A stretch of DNA of 64,000 bases from an uncultured Enterorhabdus sp. Its GTDB lineage: Bacteria > Actinomycetota > Coriobacteriia > Coriobacteriales > Eggerthellaceae. This document shows, one piece after another, positions 37,747 to 50,738 of the stretch (the stretch's first letter is position 1; every line of letters starts with the position of its first letter). The notes beneath the pieces are model-generated. The model did no database searches. It saw only the letters and a list, made by a program, of their open reading frames with translations, and had not been told where the DNA came from. The position numbers were made by a program, and so were the translations under genes. The stretch is taken from NCBI GenBank assembly GCA_947649205.1, contig CANSQM010000002.1:62001-126000 (forward strand). Direction: 5' to 3'.

Positions 37747-38268
37747 CTAGGCACCCACGTATTCCAGAATGCGACGCGCCGTAGCTCGGCTTACTTTGGA
37801 ACTGTCGCCCTTTCCGAGAAACGCATAGACGTTTCCCTTGTTCAGGCCCAGCTCTTCGCAAATCCGGTAGCCGGTGAGGCCGCGCTGCTCCATGGCGGTC
37901 AGAATCTTGCGCCGCATCAGGTCGATAACACGCCGGTCGGTGAGAACGGCATCGCGCTTCGCCACATAGGCACTCCACACCTTCTGATAGCGCTGCGGGG
38001 CACATTCCGACTGCAAGAAGGACGCAACCTCTTCGGGGGCGCCCAAGCACGACGCCGCCGCTTCGTAATCTTTCTCCATCCAAGTGCCCCGGCTAAGCGC
38101 AACCAGATACGGCGCTTTGCCCTGAATGGCAGCGAACACCATGATCGCCTCGGCAGCCGCAGGCGATCCATCGGCCGCTGCGGCACACAGCTTTTTCAAG
38201 CTATCTGTCTGCAATCCCGTCAGCTCGCGGCAATAAGAGCGGAGAAACCCCTTGAACGTCAGGTTCAT
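37747..38268 (-). CDS. HTH protein paired with a DUF6036-like nucleotidyltransferase
   Basis: The protein has 173 residues. Its C-terminal 60 residues carry a helix-turn-helix (LTGYRICEELGLNKGNVYAFL). The N-terminal part is helical and not recognised. ATG 38266-38268 overlaps the upstream gene's TGA (ATGA), showing tight coupling. As the DNA-binding partner of a nucleotidyltransferase gene it is the probable antitoxin and autorepressor, with the 12-bp inverted repeat at 38807-38840 as operator. A 129-bp piece of this gene is duplicated exactly at 38959-39087. Confidence 0.75.
   Translation of the reverse strand: MNLTFKGFLRSYCRELTGLQTDSLKKLCAAAADGSPAAAEAIMVFAAIQGKAPYLVALSRGTWMEKDYEAAASCLGAPEEVASFLQSECAPQRYQKVWSAYVAKRDAVLTDRRVIDLMRRKILTAMEQRGLTGYRICEELGLNKGNVYAFLGKGDSSKVSRATARRILEYVGA
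37829..37957 (-). repeat. 129-bp exact repeat, copy 1 (inside the HTH gene)
   Basis: Identical base for base to 38959-39087, same orientation, offset 1130 bp. It encodes the DRRVIDLMRRKILTAMEQRG and helix-turn-helix core. Confidence 0.98.
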
Positions 38269-38795
38269 CTCCCAATCCTTTCGCAAAAGCGCTCATAGGC
38301 GCCGAGCATCTCCCGATACCGACGTGCCGACAATGCCGAGGCTTGGGCTTCGTCGGAAGCACGAACTAAATGATCGAGCAATTCCCAATCCACCAGCCCT
38401 TGCCGGGCGGCATTGTCCATATCCTGAAGGTCATGGGGGCGCTCCGCATAGAGCTTCATGACGATCATGTCCTCGGTCGAAGGAGTGCAGTACGTGATCG
38501 CCCTCGCCCCCATATCCAAGGGCACAAGTCTGTCTTCGAAATTATAGGGTATCTGATCTGCATAGGTTGCAACAGCACCGTTGACATGGGGATAGGCGTT
38601 GAGTATCTCGCGAACTTGCCGACTTGCTTGCAGGACATCCACATCATGAGTGACAGGCCTTGAAGTAAGATCTCTCAACATGAAAGCCGCTCCACCAACA
38701 ATCACGACCACGGGTTTCGCCTTTGCGGGGTCAAGGACAAAAGATGCCTCTTCATCAATGGAGAGAAGCACTTCGACAAGATCGTTCTTATTCAT
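38265..38795 (-). CDS. DUF6036-like nucleotidyltransferase, probable toxin of a TA pair
   Basis: The protein has 176 residues. VVIVGGAAFMLRDLTSRPVT followed by HDVDVL gives the nucleotidyltransferase pattern GG...(ca. 15)...DxD; residues around EDMIVMKLYAERPHDLQDM match the same fold. Such enzymes act as toxins (AbiEii/MenT-like) when paired with a DNA-binding antitoxin. It is the first gene of the operon and shares an ATGA with the HTH gene. Confidence 0.8.
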   Translation of the reverse strand: MNKNDLVEVLLSIDEEASFVLDPAKAKPVVVIVGGAAFMLRDLTSRPVTHDVDVLQASRQVREILNAYPHVNGAVATYADQIPYNFEDRLVPLDMGARAITYCTPSTEDMIVMKLYAERPHDLQDMDNAARQGLVDWELLDHLVRASDEAQASALSARRYREMLGAYERFCERIGR

Positions 38796-38840: not shown

Positions 38841-39122
38841 GCCATTGGCTTCGTGCAATATCGTGTGCCTGATACATGCCCATCTTCGAGAGAGGAACGC
38901 TCTTGGCAGACCAGCCAGGCAGCGGAACCAGCGACGAGCAGGTGGCGGCACAAGGTGCACGTTTCCCTTGTTCAGGCCCAGCTCTTCGCAAATCCGGTAG
39001 CCGGTGAGGCCGCGCTGCTCCATGGCGGTCAGAATCTTGCGCCGCATCAGGTCGATAACACGCCGGTCGGTGAGAACGGCATCGCGCAGCTCGGTGCCGA
39101 TCGCGTTGGCCTCGCGAGACAA
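38817..39122 (-). pseudogene. Chimeric remnant carrying the duplicated HTH core
   Basis: The open frame joins an unrelated N-terminus (SREANAIGTELRD) to the exact HTH copy and then to out-of-family sequence after KGNV. No ribosome site was seen. It is best read as a fragment left by duplication or recombination. Confidence 0.7.
38959..39087 (-). repeat. 129-bp exact repeat, copy 2
   Basis: Identical to 37829-37957. The flanks on both sides differ completely from copy 1, giving sharp duplication borders. Confidence 0.98.
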
Positions 39123-39142: not shown

Positions 39143-39865
39143 CTACACCAAGGAGCCAACAGCGAACTCGCCAATTTGCGTCTTGCCATCCGATTCGTAA
39201 ACAGGAATATGTGTGGACACCTGGTCTTGCGCCGCCAGATACGCGTCATCGAGAACAGCCTGCACGTCCGTTTCCGGAAGGCCCGTTGCCTGGGCCAAAT
39301 CGGCAAGCCCCTGCTGGCACACAGATGCCAACCCCTCGTCGAAGGGATCGGGGATGGCCGCCCGCACCACCGTATCCAAGTATTGGGTCGCTTGCTCCAC
39401 CGTCACCTCCACACCCTCAGGCAACAGACGCGTCAGCTGTTCGGCAAGGGCCCGGTTACTTGCCGCCTCGGCATTTTCCATATATTGGACAGCCTCATCG
39501 GGACTGGTCGCATTCATGCCGGCGGCCTCTTGAAACGCATCAAAGTACACATAGCCCTCGCGACCATTGGTGGCCACCACCGCCACAAGATCCACCTGCC
39601 CGCCAGGCGCTTCGGCCTGATCTACGGTTCCATACACAAGCCCATCGTCGTTGATACGCGGCGGAATCGAATTCAGGTCAAGCCCATGATCCGCAACGGG
39701 CAACGACGCTTCAGCCACTTGCGAAGTGGCGGAGCTCTCCTCAGATACGGTCGTCGCGCCAAACGCCGACGAAACTCCTATCATGAGCCCCATGCCCAAC
39801 ACCGTTACGCCGAGCACGCGCACCACCGTTTTCCGAGAAATCAACTCCGAAGATTTCGCCTTCAT
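39143..39865 (-). CDS. Exported protein with a TYG/IPVY-type C-terminal module
   Basis: The protein has 240 residues with a signal peptide (basic KAKSSELISRK, hydrophobic VLGVTVLGMGLMIGV, cleavage near AFG-A). The mature part contains DDGLVYGTVDQAE, DLVAVVATNGREGYVYFD and ends HIPVYESDGKTQIGEFAVG. This pattern (GxxYG, then DLIAVxxxxGxEGY, then IPVYDxDGxTxIG) recurs in the genes at 40170 and 42219. ATG 39863-39865 has GAAGGAGG upstream. Function unknown. It is downstream of promoter site A. Confidence 0.75.
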   Translation of the reverse strand: MKAKSSELISRKTVVRVLGVTVLGMGLMIGVSSAFGATTVSEESSATSQVAEASLPVADHGLDLNSIPPRINDDGLVYGTVDQAEAPGGQVDLVAVVATNGREGYVYFDAFQEAAGMNATSPDEAVQYMENAEAASNRALAEQLTRLLPEGVEVTVEQATQYLDTVVRAAIPDPFDEGLASVCQQGLADLAQATGLPETDVQAVLDDAYLAAQDQVSTHIPVYESDGKTQIGEFAVGSLV

Positions 39866-39934
39866 GGCTACCAACCTCCTTCGCTCGATCAACTTTCCAG
39901 TTGCATCCCTGTGAAAACACCCTTGCGAAAGAAT

Positions 39935-40141
39935 CTAAACGTCAGCGTTGATGTAATCCATGACCCTTTGCCCATCAGCCTCATCTAGTGGCTCTGATCC
40001 AAAATTCTCATGTACCGCCGAGCCATCATCTCCGTAGACGGGAATATAGTCAACGACATTCGCTTGTGCCTCATCAATAACCTCATTAACAAGCTGCCCA
40101 TCAAGGGACGCGAACAGCACTGGATCCGCAGCCTTAATCAC
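39935..40141 (-). pseudogene. Fragment of a paralogous exported protein
   Basis: The 68-residue frame has the module's IPVYGDDGSA near its end but no start of its own. In the same frame the sequence continues upstream as SNRAKALLEV, echoing the SNRALAEQL of the 39143 gene, and then runs into the end of the lipoprotein gene. Probably a remnant left by recombination among paralogues. Confidence 0.55.
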
Positions 40142-40169
40142 CTCGAGAAGAGCTTTCGCACGGTTTGAA

Positions 40170-40547
40170 TTACATAGTTCCTAGAATGGTTTTTCCATCT
40201 TGGGCGTACAGTGTCACGCCGTCGAGCGTGCGAGGCGCAGCGGCTTCAGGAGAAGGAGGGTCCTCTCCAAAAAAGTCGTCGAGAGTGATGTAGCCCTCGA
40301 TGCCTTCAGTGTTCTGCGCCAAAATGAGGTCGGGATAGAAGACCTTCATCTCCTCCGTTGTCCCGCTGAAGCCCTCTGGAATGTTCGCGTCGAGTGCGCT
40401 ACCGTAAGTCTGGCCTACCTCGTTGACGGGAAAATCAACTCCATTGATGCTACGGTACTGCGTCTCTGACTGAGTACAGCCTCCACATACCATGCCGATC
40501 ACCAACACCACCAGCGCCACGCCAAAAATGCTCTTCCATTTCTTCAT
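40170..40547 (-). CDS. Small lipoprotein with TYG/IEGY module
   Basis: The protein has 125 residues. A lipoprotein signal (LVVLVIGMVCGGC, lipobox Cys near residue 23) is followed by VNEVGQTYGSALDANIPEG, PDLILAQNTEGIEGYITLDD and a C-terminal LYAQDGKTILG. The module is shared with the 39143 and 42219 genes. It starts 81 bp downstream of ECF-type promoter site A, with GGGGTGAG before the ATG. Confidence 0.75.
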   Translation of the reverse strand: MKKWKSIFGVALVVLVIGMVCGGCTQSETQYRSINGVDFPVNEVGQTYGSALDANIPEGFSGTTEEMKVFYPDLILAQNTEGIEGYITLDDFFGEDPPSPEAAAPRTLDGVTLYAQDGKTILGTM

Positions 40548-40627
40548 GAGAGCTCACCCCTTACGTCAGACTTGGGTAGCCGTCGCCACCCGTTTGAAGA
40601 AATCGGAGAATTTTCCCTTCACTGAGC

Positions 40628-40655
40628 CATACACTTGAGGCGGGCAATTCCTTAC
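40628..40655 (-). promoter_or_regulatory. ECF-type promoter site A
   Basis: Minus strand: TGTAAGGA (core 40651-40655) and GTGTATGG (core 40628-40632), start-to-start 23 bp, followed by CTCAGTGA. Reads into the lipoprotein at 40547. Confidence 0.7.
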
Positions 40656-40754
40656 AAATTTGATAAAATTTTTTGATAGATTTCTAAAGAAATTGTTCAC
40701 CGATATATCTCGGAGGCTTTGGTCAAACTTTTCGAAAAGTTTTTTCAAAAAGCT

Positions 40755-40782
40755 GTAAGAAAACAAGGGGGTTCGGGGTAAG
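40755..40782 (+). promoter_or_regulatory. ECF-type promoter site E, upstream of the sigma gene
   Basis: Plus strand: TGTAAGAAA (core 40755-40759) and GGGTAAGG (core 40778-40782), 23 bp apart, followed by CTTGTAG. It reads into the ECF sigma gene, so the factor would drive its own operon. Confidence 0.72.
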
Positions 40783-40905
40783 GCTTGTAGAAGAGATTGC
40801 GCAACTCTAGGAAGCACTCAGCGAGAGGAGTGTGGTGCTATCGACAATATCGATGACATTGAACGGGCATTCGATGCCTACGGAGACCGCGTCTCTTGGC
40901 TAGCT

Positions 40906-41364
40906 ATGCGTTACTTCAAGTCGCGGGATACGGCGGACGATATCGTTCAGGAGACGTTTCTCCGGCTCTGCCGCACCACTACCGTCTTCGCAAGCGAAAA
41001 GCATCTTGAGAATTGGCTGATTAAAACAGCGGCCAACCTTTGCAAAAACAGAATCCGTCATCTTTCGAATCACCCAGCCGCAGCATTTGACGATGCCGCC
41101 GTAGAAGCCCTCGATCAAAGGGCTTTCGACCAGTACTCCCTCGATGAGGTTGAAAAAGATGCCCGTGAATTCATAGGCGAGCATCTTGACGCGCTGCCAG
41201 AGGATCTGCGCGACATCATCAACCTGCGCTACTTCGACGAGAACGACACGGCTACCATCGCCGAAACCATCGGCATCAGCAAGAGAAACGTCTACGTCAG
41301 GCTACACCGTGCACGCAAATTTCTCAGAGAAAGGATTGAGAGGGAGGGGGTTTCCCATGCTTGA
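40906..41364 (+). CDS. ECF sigma factor (start uncertain, possibly frameshifted)
   Basis: From ATG 40906 the protein has 152 residues. Region 2 is YFKSRDTADDIVQETFLRL; region 4 is LRYFDENDTATIAETIGISK plus RNVYVRLHRARKFLRE. The same frame stays open upstream to 40759 and encodes typical region 2.1 sequence (DDIERAFDAYGDRVSWLA) but holds no ATG, GTG or TTG. A good GAGAGGAG site (40823-40830) precedes GTG 40832/40835, which is out of frame by two bases, or ATC 40840 in frame. The anti-sigma-like gene overlaps the stop by 8 bp. Confidence 0.82.
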   Translation: MRYFKSRDTADDIVQETFLRLCRTTTVFASEKHLENWLIKTAANLCKNRIRHLSNHPAAAFDDAAVEALDQRAFDQYSLDEVEKDAREFIGEHLDALPEDLRDIINLRYFDENDTATIAETIGISKRNVYVRLHRARKFLRERIEREGVSHA

Positions 41365-42214
41365 CCGGGATTCCGCATACCACGCAGCTGAACTTGAGCG
41401 CTGCAAACTGAGGCCCGAGAGCGCCCAAAGAATTCGGCAGCGGCTACGCCAAGAGTGCGCCATGAACAACCACAGAAAGTTGTTGCGAGGCAGAAGCCGT
41501 GCGTCTGCCGGTCGCATGGCGCACTCCGGGCAACGCGCAAAGACAGCTACGTTTCTAAAGGCGGTCGCCTGCCTTGCGATTATCGCCGGCATCGGCGTTC
41601 TCGTAAATACGGGCATGGTCGTCCACGAGACGACCACCCACTCTGTTGAACGCGCCATAGCAGGTACCCCCATGCGCCCCTATCAGCGCATCGAGTTGGA
41701 GGGTGGATTTTTTAGCTGTCCCGCAGCCGAACCGCCCTATCGCGAAACGAGAGTGTATACCCCATCCGCGCAGTACCAGTGTGGCGTAACAGCACGATTA
41801 TTCCTGCCTGGCATCTCTGCCGACCAGTGCGAAATAGCTTTAATGAATGCTGGCGACGCAAGGGTGTGCTGCGAAGACCTCTTAAGTCTGAACATGGAAA
41901 TCCCACCAGAAAGTACGCGAGCTATCGCCACTAAAGACACTGACTATCTTTTCAATATTACGTGGCCGATAGAAATGACCCAGAAAAAATTTGACGAAGT
42001 ATTCGGGGAGACACCGGGTTTCTCGTGGCTTAGCCGAGAACCTGCAACTTTTTTCGACTCAATTCGTGATGCCCAACTTCTTGTAACAGCTGATGGGATC
42101 ACGCACACCTATCGTTTTAACTTTGGCGATCTCACCGACGAACAATCTATTCGACGGGAATTCGCACACAATTACAAACCCGCTATTTTTGGTCTCATTG
42201 AGGAGAACAGGTGA
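41357..42214 (+). CDS. Membrane anti-sigma-like protein
   Basis: The protein has 285 residues. An N-terminal cytoplasmic part with many Arg/Lys (about 75 residues) could hold the sigma factor. One hydrophobic segment follows (FLKAVACLAIIAGIGVLV, about 65-85), then a 200-residue external domain with four or more Cys. ATG 41357 overlaps the sigma gene by 8 bp. Its position directly after an ECF gene is the main reason for the call. Confidence 0.72.
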   Translation: MLDRDSAYHAAELERCKLRPESAQRIRQRLRQECAMNNHRKLLRGRSRASAGRMAHSGQRAKTATFLKAVACLAIIAGIGVLVNTGMVVHETTTHSVERAIAGTPMRPYQRIELEGGFFSCPAAEPPYRETRVYTPSAQYQCGVTARLFLPGISADQCEIALMNAGDARVCCEDLLSLNMEIPPESTRAIATKDTDYLFNITWPIEMTQKKFDEVFGETPGFSWLSREPATFFDSIRDAQLLVTADGITHTYRFNFGDLTDEQSIRREFAHNYKPAIFGLIEENR

Positions 42215-42218
42215 TTTG

Positions 42219-42888
42219 ATGCAAAATTCCATACTCGATCGTTCGGCCACCCGCCGGTCTTTCTCCGTTCTAGCCGCTACCGCCATTTTCACCATGGCCT
42301 TCTCGCCCTCCCAGGCGCTTGCTGCCACCCTGTGGAGCACATCTTCTTCCCACTCGGATCAGGGCGTGAGGTTTACCTACCCAGTCTGGCCTAGATACCG
42401 GATCACCCGTCAAAGCCCACACCACCATCAGAGCTAGCCAGTCTGTACCCGCAGGAACGATGTACGCCCAGGCATGCATCGTCAAGGGCCTCGATCTTGC
42501 CATCATCGCCTCCAGCGCAGCAACTTCCAATAAGACTAAGACAGCATCATTGACGGCGACCGTGAGCCTCAACAGATTGGCCGCAGGATATCGATCAAAG
42601 GGCAAGGTGAAGACCTACAGCTCTGGCTGGAGATCATGCACTTCCACTGCAGTAGGCTACTCCCTATCTTCCGATCTCCCCATGAATGGCAGCGGCCAGA
42701 CTTACGGCACCTACGGAGATGTAGAGGCGGGCGCCATTCCCGATCTCATTGCCATCGTGGCCGATAGTGGCCTTGAGGGCTATGCGCTCTACGAGCAGTT
42801 CAGCGCGGTGGACGCGCCCGATGCCATTCCCGTCTACGACGTTGAGGGAACCACTCTCATCGGCATGTTCGCGTTTGGGGACAAATAG
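42219..42888 (+). pseudogene. Frameshifted exported protein, third member of the TYG/IPVY family
   Basis: ATG 42219 begins a clear signal peptide (FSVLAATAIFTMAFSPSQALA, first frame) and continues to about 42390. The next frame then carries DTGSPVKAHTTIRASQ and a coherent protein ending SGQTYGTYGDVEAG, DLIAIVADSGLEGYALYEQ and IPVYDVEGTTLIGMFAFG. The first frame stops at 42435 and the second has no signal of its own. A single shift near 42375-42395 would restore one 220-residue exported protein. It lies 4 bp after the anti-sigma-like gene. Confidence 0.75.
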
Positions 42889-42945
42889 CGCAGCGTCGCG
42901 AGCACCGGCACATCCAAACACCTAGCAACTTACCGACGGCAAAAA

Positions 42946-42987
42946 CGAGCGGGCCGGCTGCGCCATGAGGTGCAGCCGGCCCGCATC
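42946..42987 (-). terminator. Repeated GC hairpin, copy 1; terminator of the ABC operon
   Basis: GCGGGCCGGCTGC pairs with GCAGCCGGCCCGC. On the minus strand CTCGTTTTTG follows, making a terminator for the permease ending at 42999. It is 41/42 identical to 46781-46822. Confidence 0.85.
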
Positions 42988-42998
42988 ATCTATCCGAA

Positions 42999-43832
42999 CT
43001 ATCTGCTATAACTTGCCAGCCACTGCATTCGCCGTACCCTCATTAGGCCCAAAAGAACTGCAGACACCATGACGCCCAGGCATATTGCGAGCTCCAACTC
43101 AGGACATAGAGCGAAGTCGTCGAACTGGCGAGATCGCGCAAACATCCCATACTGAGGAAACAGCAGAGGATTCTCGAAAAACACCGAGACCAGCAGATAG
43201 GTCACCGCGCCCCCAAGCACATACGGAGCATCAACAAAAAGCGACAATGCGGTACACAGCATGCAGAGGGCTAATGACGACATATAGCATACTAAAATAT
43301 CGAGAATCAATTCCCTTGTTGAATAATTAGAATTTATTATAAGGTAATCATCATAATATAATAAATGATTATATGATACTTCAAAAACACCGCTACCATT
43401 AATTATCCCCACCGCAACACAGAATCCCAGAAGCACTATCCAAAGGATTGAGACAACCGTAAACACCCACAAGCACTTCGAGGCCCACCATGAAATGCGG
43501 CTCGTCCTGATAACAATCCCATTGCCATCACGTTCTCGCGCCCTTACAGGATAAGAGATAACGGAAAAAACAACTGCCAGCTGCACCACTATCCATGTGA
43601 CAGGCAATACGAGCACGTGATCAAGCCCAAAAACAACCGGCATGTTTCCTTCGCAAATACCCATTACGATACTTACTGCCGAGAGAGGTTCTGATGGCGA
43701 ATTGACCATACTGCGTGAGCAGATACTTACCAGTGCCGCACTTAGAATGAAGCAAGCCCCGAGAAGCCGCCATTTTGCCTCAGAAAAACCACGTTGCAAA
43801 TCATATATGTACAAGCGCATTATCTTCTTCAT
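42999..43832 (-). CDS. ABC-2 type permease (second subunit)
   Basis: The protein has 277 residues and about six hydrophobic helices (WRLLGACFILSAALVSIC first, AICLGVMVSAVLLGLMRV last), with no ATPase motif. It follows the ATPase gene by 17 bp. Codon use is less GC-biased than the genome around it, with an AT-rich stretch at 43300-43400, suggesting horizontal origin. It likely pairs with the 44499 permease. Confidence 0.8.
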   Translation of the reverse strand: MKKIMRLYIYDLQRGFSEAKWRLLGACFILSAALVSICSRSMVNSPSEPLSAVSIVMGICEGNMPVVFGLDHVLVLPVTWIVVQLAVVFSVISYPVRARERDGNGIVIRTSRISWWASKCLWVFTVVSILWIVLLGFCVAVGIINGSGVFEVSYNHLLYYDDYLIINSNYSTRELILDILVCYMSSLALCMLCTALSLFVDAPYVLGGAVTYLLVSVFFENPLLFPQYGMFARSRQFDDFALCPELELAICLGVMVSAVLLGLMRVRRMQWLASYSR

Positions 43833-43849
43833 AATCCGGCGAACCTATC

Positions 43850-44506
43850 CTACCCACCACAAAAGAGGCCTGCCCCCTCGACGTCAACAATAGACCCGTT
43901 TTCCATGAATATCGTAACGTCGGCTATTTCAGCAAGTTTTCCGACATCGTGACTAGCTACCAAAAGGCAGGCACCCCGCAAACGCTCTTCCTGAATGACT
44001 TTCAGAGTCTTCTGAACAGCCGCCTCGTCCAATCCGTTAAGGGGCTCGTCCAGCAGAATTAAATCAGGATGCTCAACAATTGCACCCGCAATCCCTAGCT
44101 TTTGCTTCATTCCCAGAGAATACTTCCGAAAAGGACGCTGATCAGCGGCATCGAGACCGACACGCTCGAGAGCAAGAGATATATCATCCGAGCTAGCCGT
44201 CTTTTTAATCGAACAAAGCAATTCTAAGTTTTTGCTTCCCGAATAGCCTCCCAGAAAAGCCGGACGCTCAATTAACAACCCGAGACTGCCGGGAAATTCA
44301 ATATCCCTCCCCAGAACTTGCCCTCCAACGATCACCTTGCCCCCCGAAGGGAATACCAGGCCTGCGATAACGCGCAAAAGCATTGTCTTGCCGCAACCGT
44401 TATGACCGCGCAGGCAATAGATTGATCCTCTCTCGAATGTAAAATCTATACTCGCAAGAATAGTATTACCCTCTATTATCTTGCTTACATCGACTACCTC
44501 AACCAT
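43850..44506 (-). CDS. ABC transporter ATP-binding protein
   Basis: The protein has 218 residues with Walker A GHNGCGKT, signature YSLGMKQKLGIAGA, Walker B LILLDEPLNGLD and H-loop ASHDVGKL. I chose ATG 44504-44506 with GAGG upstream; it overlaps the upstream permease by 8 bp. The protein is short, without the C-terminal extension seen in the 2395 ATPase. It serves the two permeases on either side. Confidence 0.9.
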   Translation of the reverse strand: MVEVVDVSKIIEGNTILASIDFTFERGSIYCLRGHNGCGKTMLLRVIAGLVFPSGGKVIVGGQVLGRDIEFPGSLGLLIERPAFLGGYSGSKNLELLCSIKKTASSDDISLALERVGLDAADQRPFRKYSLGMKQKLGIAGAIVEHPDLILLDEPLNGLDEAAVQKTLKVIQEERLRGACLLVASHDVGKLAEIADVTIFMENGSIVDVEGAGLFCGG

Positions 44507-45347
44507 ACATACCTCGATCCACTTTTCCTCTCCAAAATGACCTAATCGCGAGCAACTCTCCGATTGCAAGCAAACACAGCGCTGCACCTATAGGCGCGAA
44601 ACCGATGCCGCTATGAAAAGGTTGGTAAGGCTGCATAAACGTAATCGGAGAAAGAAACACGAACGCCTCAGTTCCTATCATTTCTCCTGCAAAGAGATAA
44701 AGGAGCCCCATGCAAAGGGCAAACGAGGAGCATGTCAAAACAATCCTGTTTCTCACAACTTGCGTACAAGCCAGAGGAAAACAGCTTAGCAAGCCACCAG
44801 TAACTGCGATCAGCGTTATATATGCCGCAGTGTACATATATGCGTTCTCATAGAAAAGCTCGCTCCACATATGGTATGCCGCAAGGGGAAATATCCCTGA
44901 GCTCGCATCTGGCTGAACCAAAGGCAAGATAAGGGAACACAGATAGAAGTTGAGCAGAAGCGGCATAGTCGAAACAGTGGCGCCAACGGCAAAGCACGCA
45001 GCCATTTTCGCCAAAATATACGCACGGATCCCTGATCGCACGCCCACCTGCTCACTCCACCCACTTCTCAAATCTTCATAAAGCGAAGACGAGAAAGGTA
45101 TGCAAACCAGCAGTGGGGTCAACATAAAATACAGCGTGGGCCAGACGCCCTCCCCCCATCCTCCAATCCATCGATTAAAAACCGACAGAGGATACTGCAC
45201 AAGATCTAAATACATGATCTGATCCTGCGCCTCGGGAAGAACGAAAAAGAAAATCTGCCCTATGGCGATCATGAAAGCCGCGGCAATCGCCGTAACATAT
45301 GCGCGGCTCAGAAAGGCTCTCTGGAACTCTTCTTTCAGCGCTCTCAC
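44499..45347 (-). CDS. ABC-2 type permease (first subunit)
   Basis: The protein has 282 residues and six hydrophobic helices (AYVTAIAAAFMIAIGQIFFF at the N-terminus, YTAAYITLIAVTGGLLSCFP in the middle). It follows the 45362 gene by 14 bp. Together with the ATPase and the second permease it forms a heterodimeric exporter or immunity transporter downstream of a small exported protein. Confidence 0.8.
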   Translation of the reverse strand: MRALKEEFQRAFLSRAYVTAIAAAFMIAIGQIFFFVLPEAQDQIMYLDLVQYPLSVFNRWIGGWGEGVWPTLYFMLTPLLVCIPFSSSLYEDLRSGWSEQVGVRSGIRAYILAKMAACFAVGATVSTMPLLLNFYLCSLILPLVQPDASSGIFPLAAYHMWSELFYENAYMYTAAYITLIAVTGGLLSCFPLACTQVVRNRIVLTCSSFALCMGLLYLFAGEMIGTEAFVFLSPITFMQPYQPFHSGIGFAPIGAALCLLAIGELLAIRSFWRGKVDRGMYG

Positions 45348-45361
45348 TGGCTAATCCTATC

Positions 45362-46063
45362 TCACGAGTGAAGGCTAACCTCTATTTTTCGTGGATAATC
45401 ACGAAACACGAGCTTGTAGTTCAAGTCTCTTACAAAGGCCCACTGACTGGAACTCATTCCAACTTGCCACAATTCGAAAGCAACTACCATATGATGCGTG
45501 GAGTGTGCCGGAGCGCGCCAATAGAATTCATTCTCTGCATGATAATTTTCATCAACCCAATATCCGTTAAGCGCCTCTGTGGCACTTTCATCATGACATG
45601 CCGAAAACGATCCGGCCTCCACGTCAAACCAAAGAGGACTGGTAGGAATATCGCTCTCGTTGCTAATCGTTAAGTCCACTAGAAGGTAAACATACTCGTC
45701 ATGAGAGCGGCCGGCTAGAGAGGCCATATCCCACTTTCCGCCGGTAAGAGAAAGCATTTCATCAACAGTCACGAAACGAGGATCGGAGAAAGAGAAGGTC
45801 ACCCCCTCCTGCATAAGATGATCGTGATCTCGACATCCCGCCACATCGATGGGCTCTCCCATACCATACTGCTCGATTACTTCTTTGCTGTCGGCAATTT
45901 CCTCTATTCCATTTGCGTCTAAAACTGCTTGCTTTTGTTCGGAGAGCAGTTGAGTGTTTACATACTGGATACGAAAATACGAAGCCATGAGCAGAGCAAC
46001 GCACACAGCAACGCCGACGACAACCTTGAGGGCGTTGCTGTGTTTTTTCAAGCCGCTGACCAT
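45362..46063 (-). CDS. Membrane-anchored extracytoplasmic protein of the ABC operon
   Basis: The protein has 233 residues: one N-terminal hydrophobic segment (VVVGVAVCVALLMASYF), a short linker and a beta-rich external domain (VYLLVDLTISNESDIPTS, then HHMVVAFELWQVGM). The plan is like the protein at 35979-36911, resembling DUF4352/DUF5027-type domains. It lies between the exported peptide gene and the permeases, so it may be an accessory or immunity factor. Family not confirmed. Confidence 0.6.
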   Translation of the reverse strand: MVSGLKKHSNALKVVVGVAVCVALLMASYFRIQYVNTQLLSEQKQAVLDANGIEEIADSKEVIEQYGMGEPIDVAGCRDHDHLMQEGVTFSFSDPRFVTVDEMLSLTGGKWDMASLAGRSHDEYVYLLVDLTISNESDIPTSPLWFDVEAGSFSACHDESATEALNGYWVDENYHAENEFYWRAPAHSTHHMVVAFELWQVGMSSSQWAFVRDLNYKLVFRDYPRKIEVSLHS

Positions 46064-46075
46064 TCCCCACCCATC

Positions 46076-46525
46076 CTAGTAACCAGAGGAGTTATCGGGG
46101 CTCCAAACGCCATCGGAATGATAGCGAGTAAGTGTATTGTTGTTCGAAAACTGCAAGTAGGCATAGGCTTCTTTGTATTGGTTAGGACGACTCTCTAGAA
46201 CATAATTAGTGAGATACTTTGTGCCTTTTGACCCAGCGTACTTCGGCCCATAGCTGTAAGTCTTGCCATCCTGGAGGCCATTGGCCCTAACGCTACCACT
46301 TCCCGTGACATTAACGCACTTCAGATACACCTTTGTCGTATTGCCTTTTGGCCGACTTGCTGTATTCTTACTCGTATTCGTCGTGATATCCACCATGTAG
46401 GTTGTATCAGCAGTATTTGCTGCATGTGCAGCAGTTGCCCCGAAAAACGACAGCATGAGCAAGAGAGCAATCCCAAAGCACATCATAGGCCGGATAATCC
46501 ACTTTTCTTTCCGCGCAAAGATCAT
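46076..46525 (-). CDS. Small exported protein, bacteriocin-like context (DUF2712-like)
   Basis: The protein has 149 residues. A long signal peptide (MMCFGIALLLMLSFFGATAA, cleavage near AHA-A) leads to a polar, Asn/Thr/Ser/Tyr-rich mature protein of about 110 residues ending SDGVWSPDNSSGY. The VWSPD ending and polar body recall exported Firmicutes proteins annotated DUF2712, often found beside ABC exporters. AAAAGGGGGG precedes ATG 46523-46525. It heads the operon of the ABC transporter and follows ECF site B. Confidence 0.65.
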   Translation of the reverse strand: MIFARKEKWIIRPMMCFGIALLLMLSFFGATAAHAANTADTTYMVDITTNTSKNTASRPKGNTTKVYLKCVNVTGSGSVRANGLQDGKTYSYGPKYAGSKGTKYLTNYVLESRPNQYKEAYAYLQFSNNNTLTRYHSDGVWSPDNSSGY

Positions 46526-46576
46526 GATCCCCCCCTTTTCGCTCCCATGGGCAATCGTCATTGCCCTTCACTATGC

Positions 46577-46604
46577 CTTACACCCGAACCGGCCCACTTC
46601 TTAC
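46577..46604 (-). promoter_or_regulatory. ECF-type promoter site B
   Basis: Minus strand: TGTAAGAA (core 46600-46604) and GTGTAAGG (core 46577-46581), 23 bp apart, then CATAGTGA. A GGGCAATGACGATTGCCC hairpin follows before the exported-protein gene; site C is followed by a close copy of that hairpin. Confidence 0.75.
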
Positions 46605-46780
46605 AGAATCTGACAACTCTTCCCAAAAAATTTTCGAGAAGGCAAGCCACTGTAGCCACCAGCGCATTCCCCTTGGCAATAAATGGCATTCGGCAAGCCG
46701 TCAAACACGGCAAGCGTATCTAGTCTTTCCCGCAATTAAAGTGGGGCACCAAAACACCCGGCAAGTCAGCAGCGACAACA

Positions 46781-46822
46781 CGAGCGGGCCGGCTGCGCCA
46801 TGGGGTGCAGCCGGCCCGCATC
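46781..46822 (-). terminator. Repeated GC hairpin, copy 2; probable terminator of the 27-residue peptide gene
   Basis: Same stem as 42946-42987 with one base change in the loop. On the minus strand it lies 33 bp after the peptide stop; the following tail is only weakly T-rich. Confidence 0.65.
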
Positions 46823-46854
46823 GTTCGGGCATCTTATTTCGACGCCGTGCGAAC

Positions 46855-46938
46855 TTACAGAGCCGCGGCTCCGACGCAGCCGGCGAGGGCGGCGGTGGCG
46901 AGGGCGAACAGGGCGGCTCCGGCAACAATGGCAATCAT
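46855..46938 (-). CDS. 27-residue hydrophobic peptide
   Basis: The peptide begins MIAIVAGAALFALATAALAG and has a single Cys followed by Val-Gly and four small residues. It is one membrane-spanning stretch of Ala, Gly, Leu and Val with no charge at all. AAGGAG lies 7 nt before ATG 46936-46938, ECF-type site D lies about 130 bp upstream and a strong hairpin follows. It may be a signalling peptide, a small bacteriocin-like peptide or a small membrane regulator. Confidence 0.55.
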   Translation of the reverse strand: MIAIVAGAALFALATAALAGCVGAAAL

Positions 46939-47068
46939 GGCAGATCTCCTTTCCGGGCAGGCGGGACAACCTCTTTCGGCGCCCCGCTTCCGTGCGGCTG
47001 GGGCGATCTCTTTCGATGCCCCGCCTTCATACGGAATAATTTCGATAAGACCACTATGACAGCCCCAC

Positions 47069-47095
47069 CTTACCGCCCCGTTGCGCGTCCCTTAC
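47069..47095 (-). promoter_or_regulatory. ECF-type promoter site D
   Basis: Minus strand: TGTAAGGG (core 47091-47095) and CGGTAAGG (core 47069-47073), 22 bp apart, one base shorter than the other sites. Reads into the 27-residue peptide gene. Confidence 0.6.
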
Positions 47096-47135
47096 AAAAA
47101 TGTCGCTTTGCGCCGAGCCCCGGGCAAAAAGCTCC

Positions 47136-48563
47136 CTACCACCCCGGCACAACGAGGCCACGCTCGGCGGCCAGCGTGTTCACCGTGGCGATCTGCCGCG
47201 CCGTTTGCTTCTGCACCGCAGCGATAAAGCGCTCGTCTATCTCGGGATTCTCCCCCAGCACGGCGGCGATGTCGTCGGCAAAGCCGTCAAGCGCCGACGG
47301 ATCGTACCAGCTGAGGTCTTCCACCAACGCCAGCTGCTGAGACGGGTACTCGCAGAACGGATGGCTCTCCCAGCCATAGGGACGCGCCTCCAGCTCGGCG
47401 GTGGTGGCCCGACTGTAGAATCCGCAACCGTGATCGAACAGCGGCGCGACACGGTAGCCATCGAGGACCTCGGCATTGCGAATGAGACCGAAGTTGTGGG
47501 TATGTCGGTCGAAGTTCGCCATAAGGTGATCGACCACGATCATCTTGTCGATGAGCCGCTGAGCACCTTCCACGCCCAAGTCCTCCAAAGCGTACAGATA
47601 GCCCCGATGCCCGTCGCGTCCCTCACTCACGGCGAAAGCGGTCAGCACATCTTGGGCGGGAATAAGCTCGGTTTCCGCCGTCACCATGTTCGCGCACGAC
47701 GAATAGGCCCTCCCCGCCCGCTCGGTCACCGTGTAGGGAACGAATTCCCCGGCCTCCAGGAGCCGTTCTAACAGCCGCGTCGCCAGCTTCTCGTTGTAGG
47801 GCTCACGGTTCTCGTTGCCCACGCCGCCCTTGATAAGATAATCCACCCCGCGCCGGCGCACCCAGGTCTTGCTGAGCATGCCGTTGGTGGCCGTATCGGG
47901 AGAATGGGTAATGGCCGGCCCGCGTCCCGATGGCACCTTGGCGGCACCTTCCCCGGGCGCCGCCCCTAGGCGAGGCGCCGGCGACAGCACCGCCAGCATG
48001 AGGTCGCCGAATGCCTCCTCATAGCCGTTCTCGAAGTAGTTCACCGCGGCCCACGTCGCCTCAGCGCCCTCGGGCCTGAACCAGTAGGGATCGGACAGGC
48101 TCAGGCCCCACGATTGGAACATGAGCGTTGGCGCGTTGCGGGCGGCCAAATCGCGCAATGCCACGGGTAGGTTGGGGCGCATGCCGGGGATGGCGCGGTT
48201 GCGCAGCCATTCCGCCATGTCATAGCGGTTCGGGGCCTTATCGCGACGGCCGATGCCGAAGGGCTTCCAGGCGATGCCGTCCAAGGGCTCGATGCCCGTA
48301 ACGGCACCGGTGCGGAAGTGATAGGTGAAGGCAAGCACCTCATGCTCGCGGCTCATGAGCGTATAGCGGGCGCTGTCGGCCGCATCATCGGCCCGGGGGC
48401 GTCCCGGCTGCGATCCGGCCTGAAGCCGCTCCCGCACCGAGGCCTCGTCCACCATCCACGCGCGGCCGAACTTCTGCGCGCGCAATGCCCCGGCCTCGAT
48501 AAGGTTGTTCACCCGCCGTGGGGTAACACCCAGCTTTTCCGCCGCCTCTTTCGTCGTCAGCAT
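47136..48563 (-). CDS. Helix-turn-helix plus HipA-like kinase protein
   Basis: The protein has 475 residues. Residues 1-50 are an excisionase/MerR-like DNA-binding domain (LTTKEAAEKLGVTPRRVNNL). The rest resembles a HipA-type kinase: LSKTWVRRRGVDYLIKGG for ATP binding and VDHLMANFDRHTHNFGLIRN for the catalytic Asp and metal site, then the DHGCGFY metal-binding part. HipA kinases phosphorylate tRNA synthetases; here no HipB partner gene is adjacent, and the fused DNA-binding domain may take its place. Confidence 0.78.
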   Translation of the reverse strand: MLTTKEAAEKLGVTPRRVNNLIEAGALRAQKFGRAWMVDEASVRERLQAGSQPGRPRADDAADSARYTLMSREHEVLAFTYHFRTGAVTGIEPLDGIAWKPFGIGRRDKAPNRYDMAEWLRNRAIPGMRPNLPVALRDLAARNAPTLMFQSWGLSLSDPYWFRPEGAEATWAAVNYFENGYEEAFGDLMLAVLSPAPRLGAAPGEGAAKVPSGRGPAITHSPDTATNGMLSKTWVRRRGVDYLIKGGVGNENREPYNEKLATRLLERLLEAGEFVPYTVTERAGRAYSSCANMVTAETELIPAQDVLTAFAVSEGRDGHRGYLYALEDLGVEGAQRLIDKMIVVDHLMANFDRHTHNFGLIRNAEVLDGYRVAPLFDHGCGFYSRATTAELEARPYGWESHPFCEYPSQQLALVEDLSWYDPSALDGFADDIAAVLGENPEIDERFIAAVQKQTARQIATVNTLAAERGLVVPGW

Positions 48564-48708
48564 ACGCGCCTCGCTTTCCCTGTGCCGCTCTGCTAACTAT
48601 ACCGAATGAGGAATAGTTTTTGCGCACGTATTCCCGAAAATAAAGGTTCCTCATAGTATAAAGCTGGCTTACTCGGCGCAAGCCTCGCCTGCATAATCAC
48701 CAGAGCCC

Positions 48709-49845
48709 TCAGCTCAAACCAGGGTCCGGTACCGCGAATAGATTCGTCAAATAGCTGTAGGCCTCACCCCTTGACTCAAGAAAAGAACTTGAGACTGTCT
48801 CTTTCGAAGAGACATCCCAGATAAATATCATCCGAGTTCTAACATCGAGGAAGTAGAGTTTGCCGTCCTTCGCGATCATTTGGTCCGCCCCATAGGGCAA
48901 CGGATACGACTCAACGGAACCTGAGGCAATGTCAAAAACGCACAAGGTTGCGCTATCGCCTGGATCACTTCCAACGATATCGTAGCAGGCTACATAGAGT
49001 TTCCCATTCTCAGCAATCACCCCGAAAGGGTAATCGCAGCCCAAGTTAATCTGCGTAATTTCTCCCGTTGATAAATCAAGGGATCCAAGTTGGGTCAACC
49101 CCTGCGGAGTCGAGTCGTCAAGGCCGGTAAAGTACAGCACACCCTCATCATAGGATGCCCGATATTGATTTGTCCCCAATGCACTAATATCAAAGGAGCG
49201 AATCTCGTTCAGGTCTGCATCGAACTGAATTACCCTTTCGGAACATGAGGGGGTTTGCCCGACACCGAAAGAATCGTTGGCGGAGAATGCCATGAGCGAT
49301 TCATTCGCCCAAAGAATAAGGCTGACGTATTCACCCGCGATAGTTTGCTCCGCAACGTCGCCAGTTATTTTGTCATAGCGCACGATATAAGAGTCGCCAT
49401 TCCTATTGCCTGCCACAAAAATATACTTGTCATGTGCTGCCACGGAAAGAATGCCGGGACGACCCACATCGTAGGATGTCATTGAGAGGTTTTGGAGAGA
49501 AAACTCAACGACCTCTTGGCCATCTTTGACATTGTAATAGCCAAGCGGCAGCGTGTAGAGCGACCCTCCCGAAATACATGGGTCGTAGAATGACTCCCCT
49601 AAGGTTGCCCTCGGAATAGGAACTTCCCACATTTCTTGCAAATCGTCATCGAGCAGCACTATTTTGCTATCAAGCCGGGTCCCGGACGTTTCAATGAAGC
49701 CTACTGCCGCGTTTTCCAAAACAGCGGCAATGTTCTCATCGGCCTCGTGCTCCCCATGATTTTTCAATACGGGAGAATCTCCCACGCAAGCAGAAAGAAA
49801 GAGAGGAACAGCCAACGCAATCAAATACAACAGCGCCCTTTTCAT
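48709..49845 (-). CDS. Lipoprotein with beta-propeller-like repeats
   Basis: The protein has 378 residues. A lipoprotein signal (LIALAVPLFLSAC, lipobox Cys near residue 20) is followed by repeated blades of the type DKYIFVAGNRNGDSYIVRYD, NGKLYVACYDIVG and DGKLYFLDVRTRMIFIWD. ATG 49843-49845 has GAGAGGA upstream. It follows the broken peptidase-like gene by about 57 bp and should be transcribed from ECF site C. A surface sensor or binding role is plausible. Confidence 0.75.
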   Translation of the reverse strand: MKRALLYLIALAVPLFLSACVGDSPVLKNHGEHEADENIAAVLENAAVGFIETSGTRLDSKIVLLDDDLQEMWEVPIPRATLGESFYDPCISGGSLYTLPLGYYNVKDGQEVVEFSLQNLSMTSYDVGRPGILSVAAHDKYIFVAGNRNGDSYIVRYDKITGDVAEQTIAGEYVSLILWANESLMAFSANDSFGVGQTPSCSERVIQFDADLNEIRSFDISALGTNQYRASYDEGVLYFTGLDDSTPQGLTQLGSLDLSTGEITQINLGCDYPFGVIAENGKLYVACYDIVGSDPGDSATLCVFDIASGSVESYPLPYGADQMIAKDGKLYFLDVRTRMIFIWDVSSKETVSSSFLESRGEAYSYLTNLFAVPDPGLS

Positions 49846-49902
49846 AGACACATCCTCTCGCAAGTAGAGGACTCCGCACAATAGCGGAGCTCTCCGCAAG
49901 CT

Positions 49903-50378
49903 CTATTTAGTGTAAACAATCATCGAAGTCTTGGGGCTTTTAAGAAGATCGGGCGGGTAGATGACCCCACCCGTCTTAACAGGACAAATGTCGATGAATG
50001 CCGTGCTCAAGTACGCCTGCCAGACCAATTGCGAACAATAGAATTGATCGGTTCTTTTTGGATTCAAGAAATCCATACTATAGGGCTTTCCTATCTGCTT
50101 TGCCGCCCAATCAGCAGCTTTAACTTGCTGGGACGACGATGCTGCGTAGATGTTAAGACCATAGCAAGTCTTTTTAGAGGTTGTCCAATTGTTCGGCCCT
50201 TTTTGCACCCCAGTTCCCAAAGACTCGATTACCGTATTTGACGTGTAGACAATTGCAGCATGGCCTGTGGGAATTAAGTCTTAATCCCCTCTTCGGCAAA
50301 AGCAATCCCTGGAGCGGCTACGGGAATGGCAAGCAATCCCACCAACGCGATTGCGAGAGTAGTTTTTCTTAATTTCAC
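49903..50378 (-). pseudogene. Frameshifted exported YiiX/papain-like peptidase-fold protein
   Basis: GTG 50376-50378 with AAGGAGG upstream begins a signal peptide (LAIALVGLLAIPVAAPGIAFA) that stops after a few residues. The next frame continues GHAAIVYTSNTVIESLGTG and then ADWAAKQIGKPY and FYCSQLVWQAY. His in GHAAIV and Cys in YCSQLV are the expected catalytic pair of the permuted papain (YiiX/YycO-like) fold. The junction at about 50275-50285 (ATTAAGACTTAAT) also seems to lack residues normally found before GHAA. Confidence 0.75.
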
Positions 50379-50738
50379 GATCGTCCTCCTTTTCGATCAG
50401 GTGAGCGATCGTCATCGCCCTTTACATCTCTCGGAAAATTTTCCTTTCACTAAGCCTTACACCGTGGACGATTGATTTCTTACAAAAATGCCGAACTTTT
50501 CGAGAATGCTTGAGTAGAAGTTCAATCTGTGTTCTTTGAAAAACATTCCGGACTCGCTGCTTCTCAGGAATTTCCTCATGTCACCACCGTGACAGCCTAA
50601 GCCTACCACGCTGTTACCAGTGCCTTACGGTTTTTGCCTTATCGGAATGCCGCGACGCCACGTGCCCTACGCAGAGGGGACAGCGCCCAACCAGCAGCCC
50701 TTAGCAACCTGCACATATTGTAAAAGGATAGAAGGCGC
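50379..50738. other. Intergenic region with ECF site C, no gene seen
   Basis: 360 bp. It holds the leader and promoter of the broken peptidase gene and a GTCAC/GTGAC pair near 50580-50593. No supported frame was found between the HAD phosphatase stop and the promoter. Confidence 0.55.
50456..50483 (-). promoter_or_regulatory. ECF-type promoter site C
   Basis: Minus strand: TGTAAGAAA (core 50479-50483) and GTGTAAGG (core 50456-50460), 23 bp apart, then CTTAGTGA. A GGCGATGACGATCGC hairpin follows, matching that after site B. Confidence 0.75.

What the first reader, a model, noticed from the sequence alone, without database searches (positions are those of the whole stretch)
39143..50483. An apparently autoregulated ECF sigma regulon built of exported proteins, an ABC exporter and a 27-residue peptide
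Five sites (40628-40655, 40755-40782, 46577-46604, 47069-47095, 50456-50483) share TGTAAG and GTAAGG-like cores 22-23 bp apart, which fits ECF -35/-10 geometry. One lies on the plus strand upstream of the ECF sigma gene; the other four each precede an exported-protein, lipoprotein or peptide gene on the minus strand. The sites and spacing are seen in the sequence. That this sigma factor recognises them is inference. If right, the stretch is one envelope or peptide-export regulon of a kind I cannot match to a described system.
Basis: partly seen in the sequence, partly recalled or inferred. Interest (0 to 1): 0.85.

Follow-up and report, generated by a model that had tools for sequence, protein, structure and literature searches.

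The report
Self-regulated cell-surface sigma factor regulon
A gut-type actinobacterium carries a small self-switching control module (a sigma factor with its membrane anchor) that appears to turn on several sets of surface proteins and an export pump together; its start signals drift from species to species, and the messages it makes share an unexplained RNA hairpin.

Summary
The five sites exist, but are two kinds of element. Four (40627-40656 -, 40754-40783 +, 46576-46605 -, 50455-50484 -) share TGTAAG-N18-GTAAGG. Exact TGTAAG-N17/18-GTAAGG occurs only four times in the 2.7-Mb genome, all in this GC-poor island. Two congeners (G001, G008) have the orthologous island; their divergent promoters keep the geometry but have other letters (TGTAAT-N18-GTG; CGTTGC-N18-GTK). 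In G001 the one remote copy precedes a homologue of the window's lipoprotein. This supports an autoregulated ECF sigma/anti-sigma regulon covering NTY-domain exported proteins, a DUF2712/ABC-exporter operon and a C92 amidase-lipoprotein operon. The fifth site (47068-47096, 27-residue peptide) is N17 with 11-bp GTAAG repeats and N9 to CATAGT, a layout shared by unrelated family promoters; I exclude it. New here: the three target leaders in the window carry a 7-bp hairpin with an invariant GACG loop, kept by compensatory changes in congeners and absent from ECF-free DUF2712 cassettes. Signal, role and the hairpin's reader are unknown; no transcript data exist. New variant of a known kind.

The parts
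40754..40783 (+). ECF-type promoter of the sigma operon, TGTAAG-N18-GTAAGG
   Evidence: G001 counterpart TGTAATAAAACCGCCTTCCCAAACGTG
40627..40656 (-). ECF-type promoter of the NTY lipoprotein operon, TGTAAG-N18-GTATGG
   Evidence: G001 counterpart TGTAATAATTCCCGCCTCCCGTTCGTG
46576..46605 (-). ECF-type promoter of the DUF2712/ABC exporter operon, TGTAAG-N18-GTAAGG
50455..50484 (-). ECF-type promoter of the C92 amidase/lipoprotein operon, TGTAAG-N18-GTAAGG
47068..47096 (-). Site upstream of the 27-aa peptide: TGTAAG-N17-GTAAGG with a middle core at 11 bp; different promoter type, judged outside the ECF regulon
40840..41364 (+). ECF sigma factor gene; start codon apparently ATC
   Evidence: Pfam sigma70 r2 and r4_2, TIGR02937; start aligned with TTG of congeners
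41363..42214 (+). Anti-sigma factor, one hydrophobic segment, extracytoplasmic domain shared with the G001/G008/G002 island anti-sigmas
   Evidence: G001 versus window E 2.7e-8
42220..42888 (+). Exported protein with C-terminal NTY domain; frameshifted here, single open frame in L221 and L223
40170..40547 (-). NTY-domain lipoprotein, orthologue in G001
39143..39892 (-). NTY-domain exported protein, downstream on the same strand; an NTY-like fragment lies at 39935-40141
46076..46561 (-). Exported DUF2712-like protein; likely start ATG at 46525
   Evidence: PF10916 E 4.9e-4, just under the curated cut-off alone, reached with its frame neighbours
42999..46063 (-). Membrane-anchored exported protein 45362-46063, ABC permease 44499-45347, ABC ATPase 43850-44506, ABC permease 42999-43832
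49903..50373 (-). Exported C92 (YiiX-like permuted papain) amidase; frame broken after the signal peptide
   Evidence: PF05708 E 2.5e-9
48709..49842 (-). Lipoprotein (377 aa) downstream on the same strand; G001 homologue 32% identical over 352 aa
40574..40591 (-). Leader hairpin GGGTGGC-GACG-GCTACCC
46549..46566 (-). Leader hairpin GGGCAAT-GACG-ATTGCCC
50403..50420 (-). Leader hairpin GGGCGAT-GACG-ATCGCTC
50433..50450 (-). Start-region element GTGAAAGGAAAATTTTCC
40605..40622 (-). Start-region element GTGAAGGGAAAATTCTCC
46855..46938 (-). 27-residue peptide MIAIVAGAALFALATAALAGCVGAAAL; conserved in four congeners; judged outside the regulon

Best explanation
An autoregulated ECF sigma/anti-sigma module on a GC-poor island. 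The membrane anti-sigma (41363-42214) holds the sigma factor (40840-41364); a cell-surface signal is presumed to release it. RNA polymerase with this sigma then starts at four promoters with TGTAAG as -35 and GTAAGG/GTATGG as -10, N18 apart: its own operon, the NTY lipoprotein operon, the DUF2712/ABC exporter operon and the C92 amidase-lipoprotein operon. The transcripts of the three target operons, but not of the sigma operon, carry a short 5' hairpin with an invariant GACG loop, which suggests a second, RNA-level layer of shared control. The products form a cell-surface response with a pump resembling lantibiotic-immunity exporters. Shown by sequence: motif specificity, gene content, cross-species footprint, hairpin covariation. 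Inferred: that this sigma uses the sites, the transcript starts, the signal, the physiological function and the role of the hairpin.
For: Exact motif only in this island genome-wide. Sigma and anti-sigma adjacent. Orthologous islands in G001 and G008 have divergent promoter pairs of identical geometry but different letters. In G001, TGTAAT-N17-CGTG has 4 genome hits: 3 in the island and 1 upstream of a homologue of the window lipoprotein. NTY-domain genes lie beside an ECF gene in 8 of the 14 family genomes that have them. The start-region element GTGARRGGRAAATTYTCC matches exactly only in the islands of G000, G001 and G008 among 138 genomes. GACG hairpins with stems of 7 bp or more: only three in 64 kb, all in the three leaders; covariation score reached by 0/500 shuffles. 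No sigma-70 consensus hit at the sites.
Against: The -35 lacks the AAC, and the -10 the CGT, typical of the first-characterised ECFs (PMC8103513). The window sigma is only 27-33% identical to the sigmas of the orthologous islands, less than to some other ECFs, so a sigma replacement is possible. For G001's motif about 2.6 chance hits are expected and the reversed control gives 2. G001's own exported-protein/ABC operon lacks a recognisable copy. Two regulon genes are frame-broken and the sigma start is non-canonical, so the island could be decaying or contain assembly errors.
Confidence: 0.74

Rival explanations
1. All sites are direct-repeat operators of an OmpR-family response regulator, not ECF promoters.
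For: GTAAGG-like direct repeats at 11-bp steps followed by N9 and a -10 hexamer occur upstream of a membrane-protein gene and of ABC-ATPase genes across the family, and the pattern search picks them up. The 47068-47096 site fits this fully and is conserved so in G008.
Against: The other four sites are 23 bp apart (not 22), have no consistent middle repeat and no -10 hexamer 9 nt downstream. In congeners the cores change in step at both divergent promoters of each island, to letters unlike GTAAGG (CGTTGC...GTK in G008).
Confidence: 0.12
2. The sites are promoters of the housekeeping sigma (TTGTAA-N18-TGTAAG read as a weak -35/-10) or of another ECF of the genome, and the neighbouring sigma gene is incidental.
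For: In two of the sites TTGTAA and TGTAAG each match 4 of 6 consensus positions by eye. The genome has further ECF candidates (6 first-look candidates). The window sigma is not the closest relative of the sigmas in the orthologous islands.
Against: The consensus scan finds no sigma-70 hit at any of the sites. G001 and G008 versions of the same promoters do not resemble TATAAT. The motif is confined to the island that holds this sigma gene and lies upstream of it.
Confidence: 0.12
3. The sites and leaders are alike only because promoter regions were recently copied along with paralogous genes, and the island is a decaying import without a working regulon.
For: Three sites share flanks at 71-73% identity (D2). 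NTY genes are paralogues. Two genes are frame-broken and the sigma start is non-canonical.
Against: The sigma, NTY, DUF2712 and C92 genes are unrelated to each other. The spacers differ while the cores and hairpin pairing are kept, by compensatory changes. Counterparts are kept in two congeners.
Confidence: 0.1

Closest known systems
ECF sigma/anti-sigma controlled lantibiotic clusters (MibX/MibW of microbisporicin, PspX of planosporicin; PMC6001450)
   Same: Actinobacterial ECF sigma with a membrane anti-sigma and target genes in the same gene cluster; here a lantibiotic-protection-like ABC ATPase is among the presumed targets (TIGR03740, E 1e-40 but below that model's cut-off).
   Different: No match to lantibiotic precursor or modification-enzyme families among the island proteins scanned. 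Presumed targets are exported NTY proteins, a DUF2712 protein, a C92 amidase and a lipoprotein; other promoter letters.
Envelope-stress ECF regulons of Gram-positive bacteria (sigma-E of Streptomyces, PMC6767563; sigma-V with RsiV, PMC5014341; both seen here only as abstracts)
   Same: Membrane anti-sigma, autoregulation inferred, surface and envelope targets.
   Different: Sigma matches no NCBIfam ECF equivalog above its cut-off; anti-sigma extracytoplasmic domain has no Pfam match; small, locally clustered regulon; target leaders share a hairpin.
DUF2712 ABC-exporter cassettes of the same bacterial family (L176-L180)
   Same: DUF2712 exported protein, ABC ATPase, membrane-anchored exported protein and permeases; G106 cassette 37-48% identical for DUF2712, permease and ATPase.
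   Different: Those cassettes have no ECF gene beside them and, where the upstream is available, no GACG leader hairpin.

Membership tests
ECF (group IV) sigma factor | sigma2 and sigma4 domains only, short linker | tested here: met
   Pfam r2 at residues 10-74 and r4_2 at 115-161 of a 173-aa protein; definition from PMC8103513
ECF (group IV) sigma factor | co-transcribed anti-sigma factor | tested here: met
   Overlapping gene 41363-42214 with one hydrophobic segment, homologous to the anti-sigmas of the G001, G008 and G002 islands; anti-sigma activity itself not tested
ECF (group IV) sigma factor | promoters with AAC as -35 and CGT as -10 (hallmark of the first-characterised ECFs only) | tested here: not met
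   TGTAAG and GTAAGG here, TGTAAT/CGTG in G001. Not a requirement of the current definition
ECF (group IV) sigma factor | positive autoregulation | tested here: inconclusive
   The same motif stands upstream of the sigma gene; expression not testable here
ECF-controlled lantibiotic cluster (MibX/PspX type) | lantibiotic precursor and modification enzymes in the cluster | tested here: not met
   No such family among the island proteins scanned
Lantibiotic-protection ABC transporter (TIGR03740) | score above the curated cut-off of 309.75 bits | tested here: not met
   139.8 bits, though it is the best match
Response-regulator type promoter (11-bp repeats, N9, -10) | GTAAGG-like cores every 11 bp, then N9, then a -10 hexamer | tested here: met
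Met only by 47068-47096; not met by the four N18 sites.
DUF2712 (PF10916) | curated cut-off of 22 bits | tested here: inconclusive
   21.2 bits alone, 22 bits with its frame neighbours; 37% identical over 131 aa to an L177 member

The most novel reading that the evidence does not exclude
The target mRNAs of one ECF sigma share a 5' hairpin with a GACG loop that is recognised by an RNA-binding factor, so that the regulon is defined twice: at the promoter by the sigma and on the transcript by the hairpin, with the sigma gene itself exempt. Across species the promoter letters drift with the sigma while the RNA mark stays.
Probability: 0.3. Interest if true: 0.75.

Novelty: new variant of a known kind. 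Interest (0 to 1): 0.56.

Why it matters
Orthologous ECF islands in one genus give a natural series in which the sigma and its -35 and -10 letters have changed while geometry, position and some target genes are kept, which makes ECF promoter co-evolution directly testable. A covarying leader hairpin confined to target operons would be an unusual RNA-level tag on a sigma regulon. The module also ties an undescribed exported domain (NTY), shared with BlaR1-like and HTH-type membrane proteins, to ECF signalling.

Tried and rejected
Orthologue search for the sigma factor in the family (138 genomes), GTDB contigs and plasmids: best about 39, 37 and 30% identity, no true orthologue. Pattern hits in other family genomes looked like support but most that could be read are a different, 11-bp-repeat promoter or chance. 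My first G001 pattern was one base too long and is void. Structure of the NTY domain: mean pLDDT 55, PDB search without a hit at E below 0.001; not used. PDB sequence search: nothing convincing. Rfam: only a tRNA in the window. A uORF reading of the hairpin ((A/G)TGACG in 5 of 6) was considered and set aside: by eye the G008 and G001-2808 cases lack a ribosome-binding site, one leader lacks a start, and frames differ. PADLOC: only ATPase and HipA-like matches. No paper on DUF2712 in the held library. G008 motif genome-wide: three exact hits, two of them the island pair; only moderately specific. Laying the whole genome in the Python box was not available, so no position-weight-matrix scan of the genome was made.
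Full report
OBSERVATION. The five cores are in the sequence. With N18 and at most one mismatch there are four hits in the window against 0.03 expected in shuffles. In the whole genome (G000, 2.735 Mb, 70 contigs) exact TGTAAG-N17/18-GTAAGG occurs four times, all between window positions 40754 and 50484; the reversed control gives none. With one mismatch (N18) the site at 40627-40656 and one hit on contig C14 are added; with two mismatches the count (37) is below the control (96), so nothing further is claimed. The stretch is GC-poor (47-56% in most 1-kb windows, with a 59-63% block at 47-49 kb, against about 60-69% in most of the flanks).

GENES. Plus strand: an ECF sigma gene, an overlapping gene for a protein with one hydrophobic stretch that is homologous to the protein in the same place in G001, and an exported protein that is frameshifted. 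Minus strand from 40627: an NTY lipoprotein, an NTY-like fragment, an NTY exported protein. Minus strand from 46576: DUF2712-like exported protein, membrane-anchored exported protein, permease, ATPase, permease. Minus strand from 50455: exported C92 amidase (frame broken after the signal peptide) and a 377-aa lipoprotein. NTY is my label for the pattern NxxGQTYG...PDL...GY...IPVYxxDGxTxIGxF; it has no Pfam match. The sigma frame has no ATG/GTG/TTG before 40906; ATC at 40840, nine bases after AGGAG, aligns exactly with the TTG starts of congeners.

RELATIVES. The sigma has no close orthologue: best about 39% in 138 family genomes, 37% in GTDB contigs. But its nearest relatives (G059, G060) have NTY proteins beside the ECF gene, and of 14 family genomes with NTY domains 8 have an ECF gene within the fetched locus (rough binomial 2e-5 under an assumed ECF density). 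In G001 and G008 the island is orthologous: ECF, anti-sigma and NTY exported protein on one strand, NTY or other exported genes divergent. In G001 an exported-protein/ABC operon also follows on the minus strand, and the homoserine dehydrogenase gene is a neighbour as in the window.

PROMOTER FOOTPRINT. In G001 the divergent pair reads CTGTAATAA...CGTGATAGAG and CTGTAATAA...CGTGTCTAGG, with a third copy upstream of an exported 303-aa protein. In G008 it reads TCGTTGCGGTT...CTCGTGTTA and TCGTTGCGGTT...CTCGTTTAT. All have N18 between the first hexamer and the GT of the second. The letters thus change together at both promoters of each island while geometry and position stay, as expected when one sigma reads both. 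In G001 the pattern TGTAAT-N17-CGTG has four exact hits in 3 Mb: three in the island, and one about 50 kb away upstream of a lipoprotein that is 32% identical over 352 aa (E 2e-48) to the window lipoprotein at 48709-49842. About 2.6 hits are expected by chance and the reversed control gives 2; the strength of this test lies in which genes are hit.

THE FIFTH SITE. The 27-aa peptide is conserved at 81-89% identity in G008, G001, G003 and G004. G003 and G004 gave no NTY match, so the peptide does not depend on the island. In G008 its upstream reads TGTAATGGGCGTGCAAGGGGGCGGTAAGTTGGGGCTGTCATAGT, against TGTAAGGGACGCGCAACGGGGCGGTAAGGTGGGGCTGTCATAGT here: three cores 11 bp apart, N9, CATAGT (upstream regions of G001, G003 and G004 were not read). 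The same architecture (repeats, TTAAGG, N9, TATAAC) stands upstream of a membrane-protein gene in many family genomes. I therefore remove it from the ECF regulon; a response regulator as its reader is inference.

LEADER ELEMENTS. Just after the ECF sites of the NTY lipoprotein and C92 operons, in this genome and in congeners, lies GTGARRGGRAAATTYTCC. Exact matches in 138 genomes: four, all in these islands; the DUF2712 operon keeps only the GTGAAGGG part. Further down, the leaders of the three window target operons have a 7-bp stem with a GACG loop. In 64 kb, both strands, no other GACG loop has a stem of 7 bp or more, and one other has 6. Three leaders of G001 and G008 have it too. Over six sequences 95% of cells pair, five of seven pairs show changes on both sides, the covariation score is 0.857 against 0.389 in shuffles (0/500), and it vanishes on sliding. 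The six were chosen for having the hairpin, so the unbiased evidence is the window scan. RNA folding recovers the hairpin in each. The window and G008 sigma leaders lack it; G001's has only a wobble-rich 6-bp GACG match at the ribosome-binding site. The leaders of G001's NTY lipoprotein and remote lipoprotein show none, and the four ECF-free DUF2712 cassettes whose upstream is available lack it. A conserved asymmetric loop on a sequence-variable stem points to RNA rather than to a DNA operator; function unknown.

MECHANISM AND ROLE. Most likely a surface signal inactivates the anti-sigma, and the freed sigma transcribes its own operon and three surface or export operons. The ABC ATPase scores best against lantibiotic-protection transporters but well below their cut-off, and no lantibiotic genes were found among the proteins scanned, so protection against, or handling of, surface-active peptides is a guess (about 40%). 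Nothing here tests transcription.

COMPARISON. The general scheme is known (PMC8103513), and ECF control of peptide clusters in actinomycetes is known (MibX, PspX; PMC6001450). Different here: promoter letters without AAC/CGT, an NTY protein set, and the leader hairpin. The host family was not named by the tools; an Eggerthellaceae-type actinobacterium is my inference from gene content.

Noticed in passing
L065, L068-L079, L082, L088 (upstream of a roughly 250-aa membrane protein); L063, L064 (upstream of an ABC ATPase): A family-wide promoter layout of GTAAGG-like 11-bp repeats, N9 and TATAAC, probably a conserved response-regulator regulon in this bacterial family.
   Followed up: partly
window 40840: The sigma gene appears to start with ATC, a very rare start codon, at the place where congeners use TTG.
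   Followed up: partly
window 37829-37957 and 38959-39087: 129-nt direct repeat at 100% identity: the second copy is a partial duplicate of the gene at 37747-38286, and the two copies flank a DUF6036 nucleotidyltransferase gene (38265-38795).
   Followed up: no
window 42942-42987 and 46777-46822: Two nearly identical (96%) 46-nt GC-rich palindromes, after the sigma operon and after the 27-aa peptide gene, possibly terminators.
   Followed up: no
window 42220-42888 and 49903-50373: Two regulon genes have broken frames; intact orthologues of the first exist in L221 and L223.
   Followed up: partly
L092:8992-10891, L099:16001-17728: The NTY domain also occurs in Firmicutes, as the C-terminal part of an HTH-TM protein next to an ECF pair and of a BlaR1-like M56-type protein.
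   Followed up: partly
window 47136-48563: Gene with an N-terminal helix-turn-helix and a weak HipA-like C-terminal match, GC-rich, sitting inside the GC-poor island between two regulon operons.
   Followed up: no
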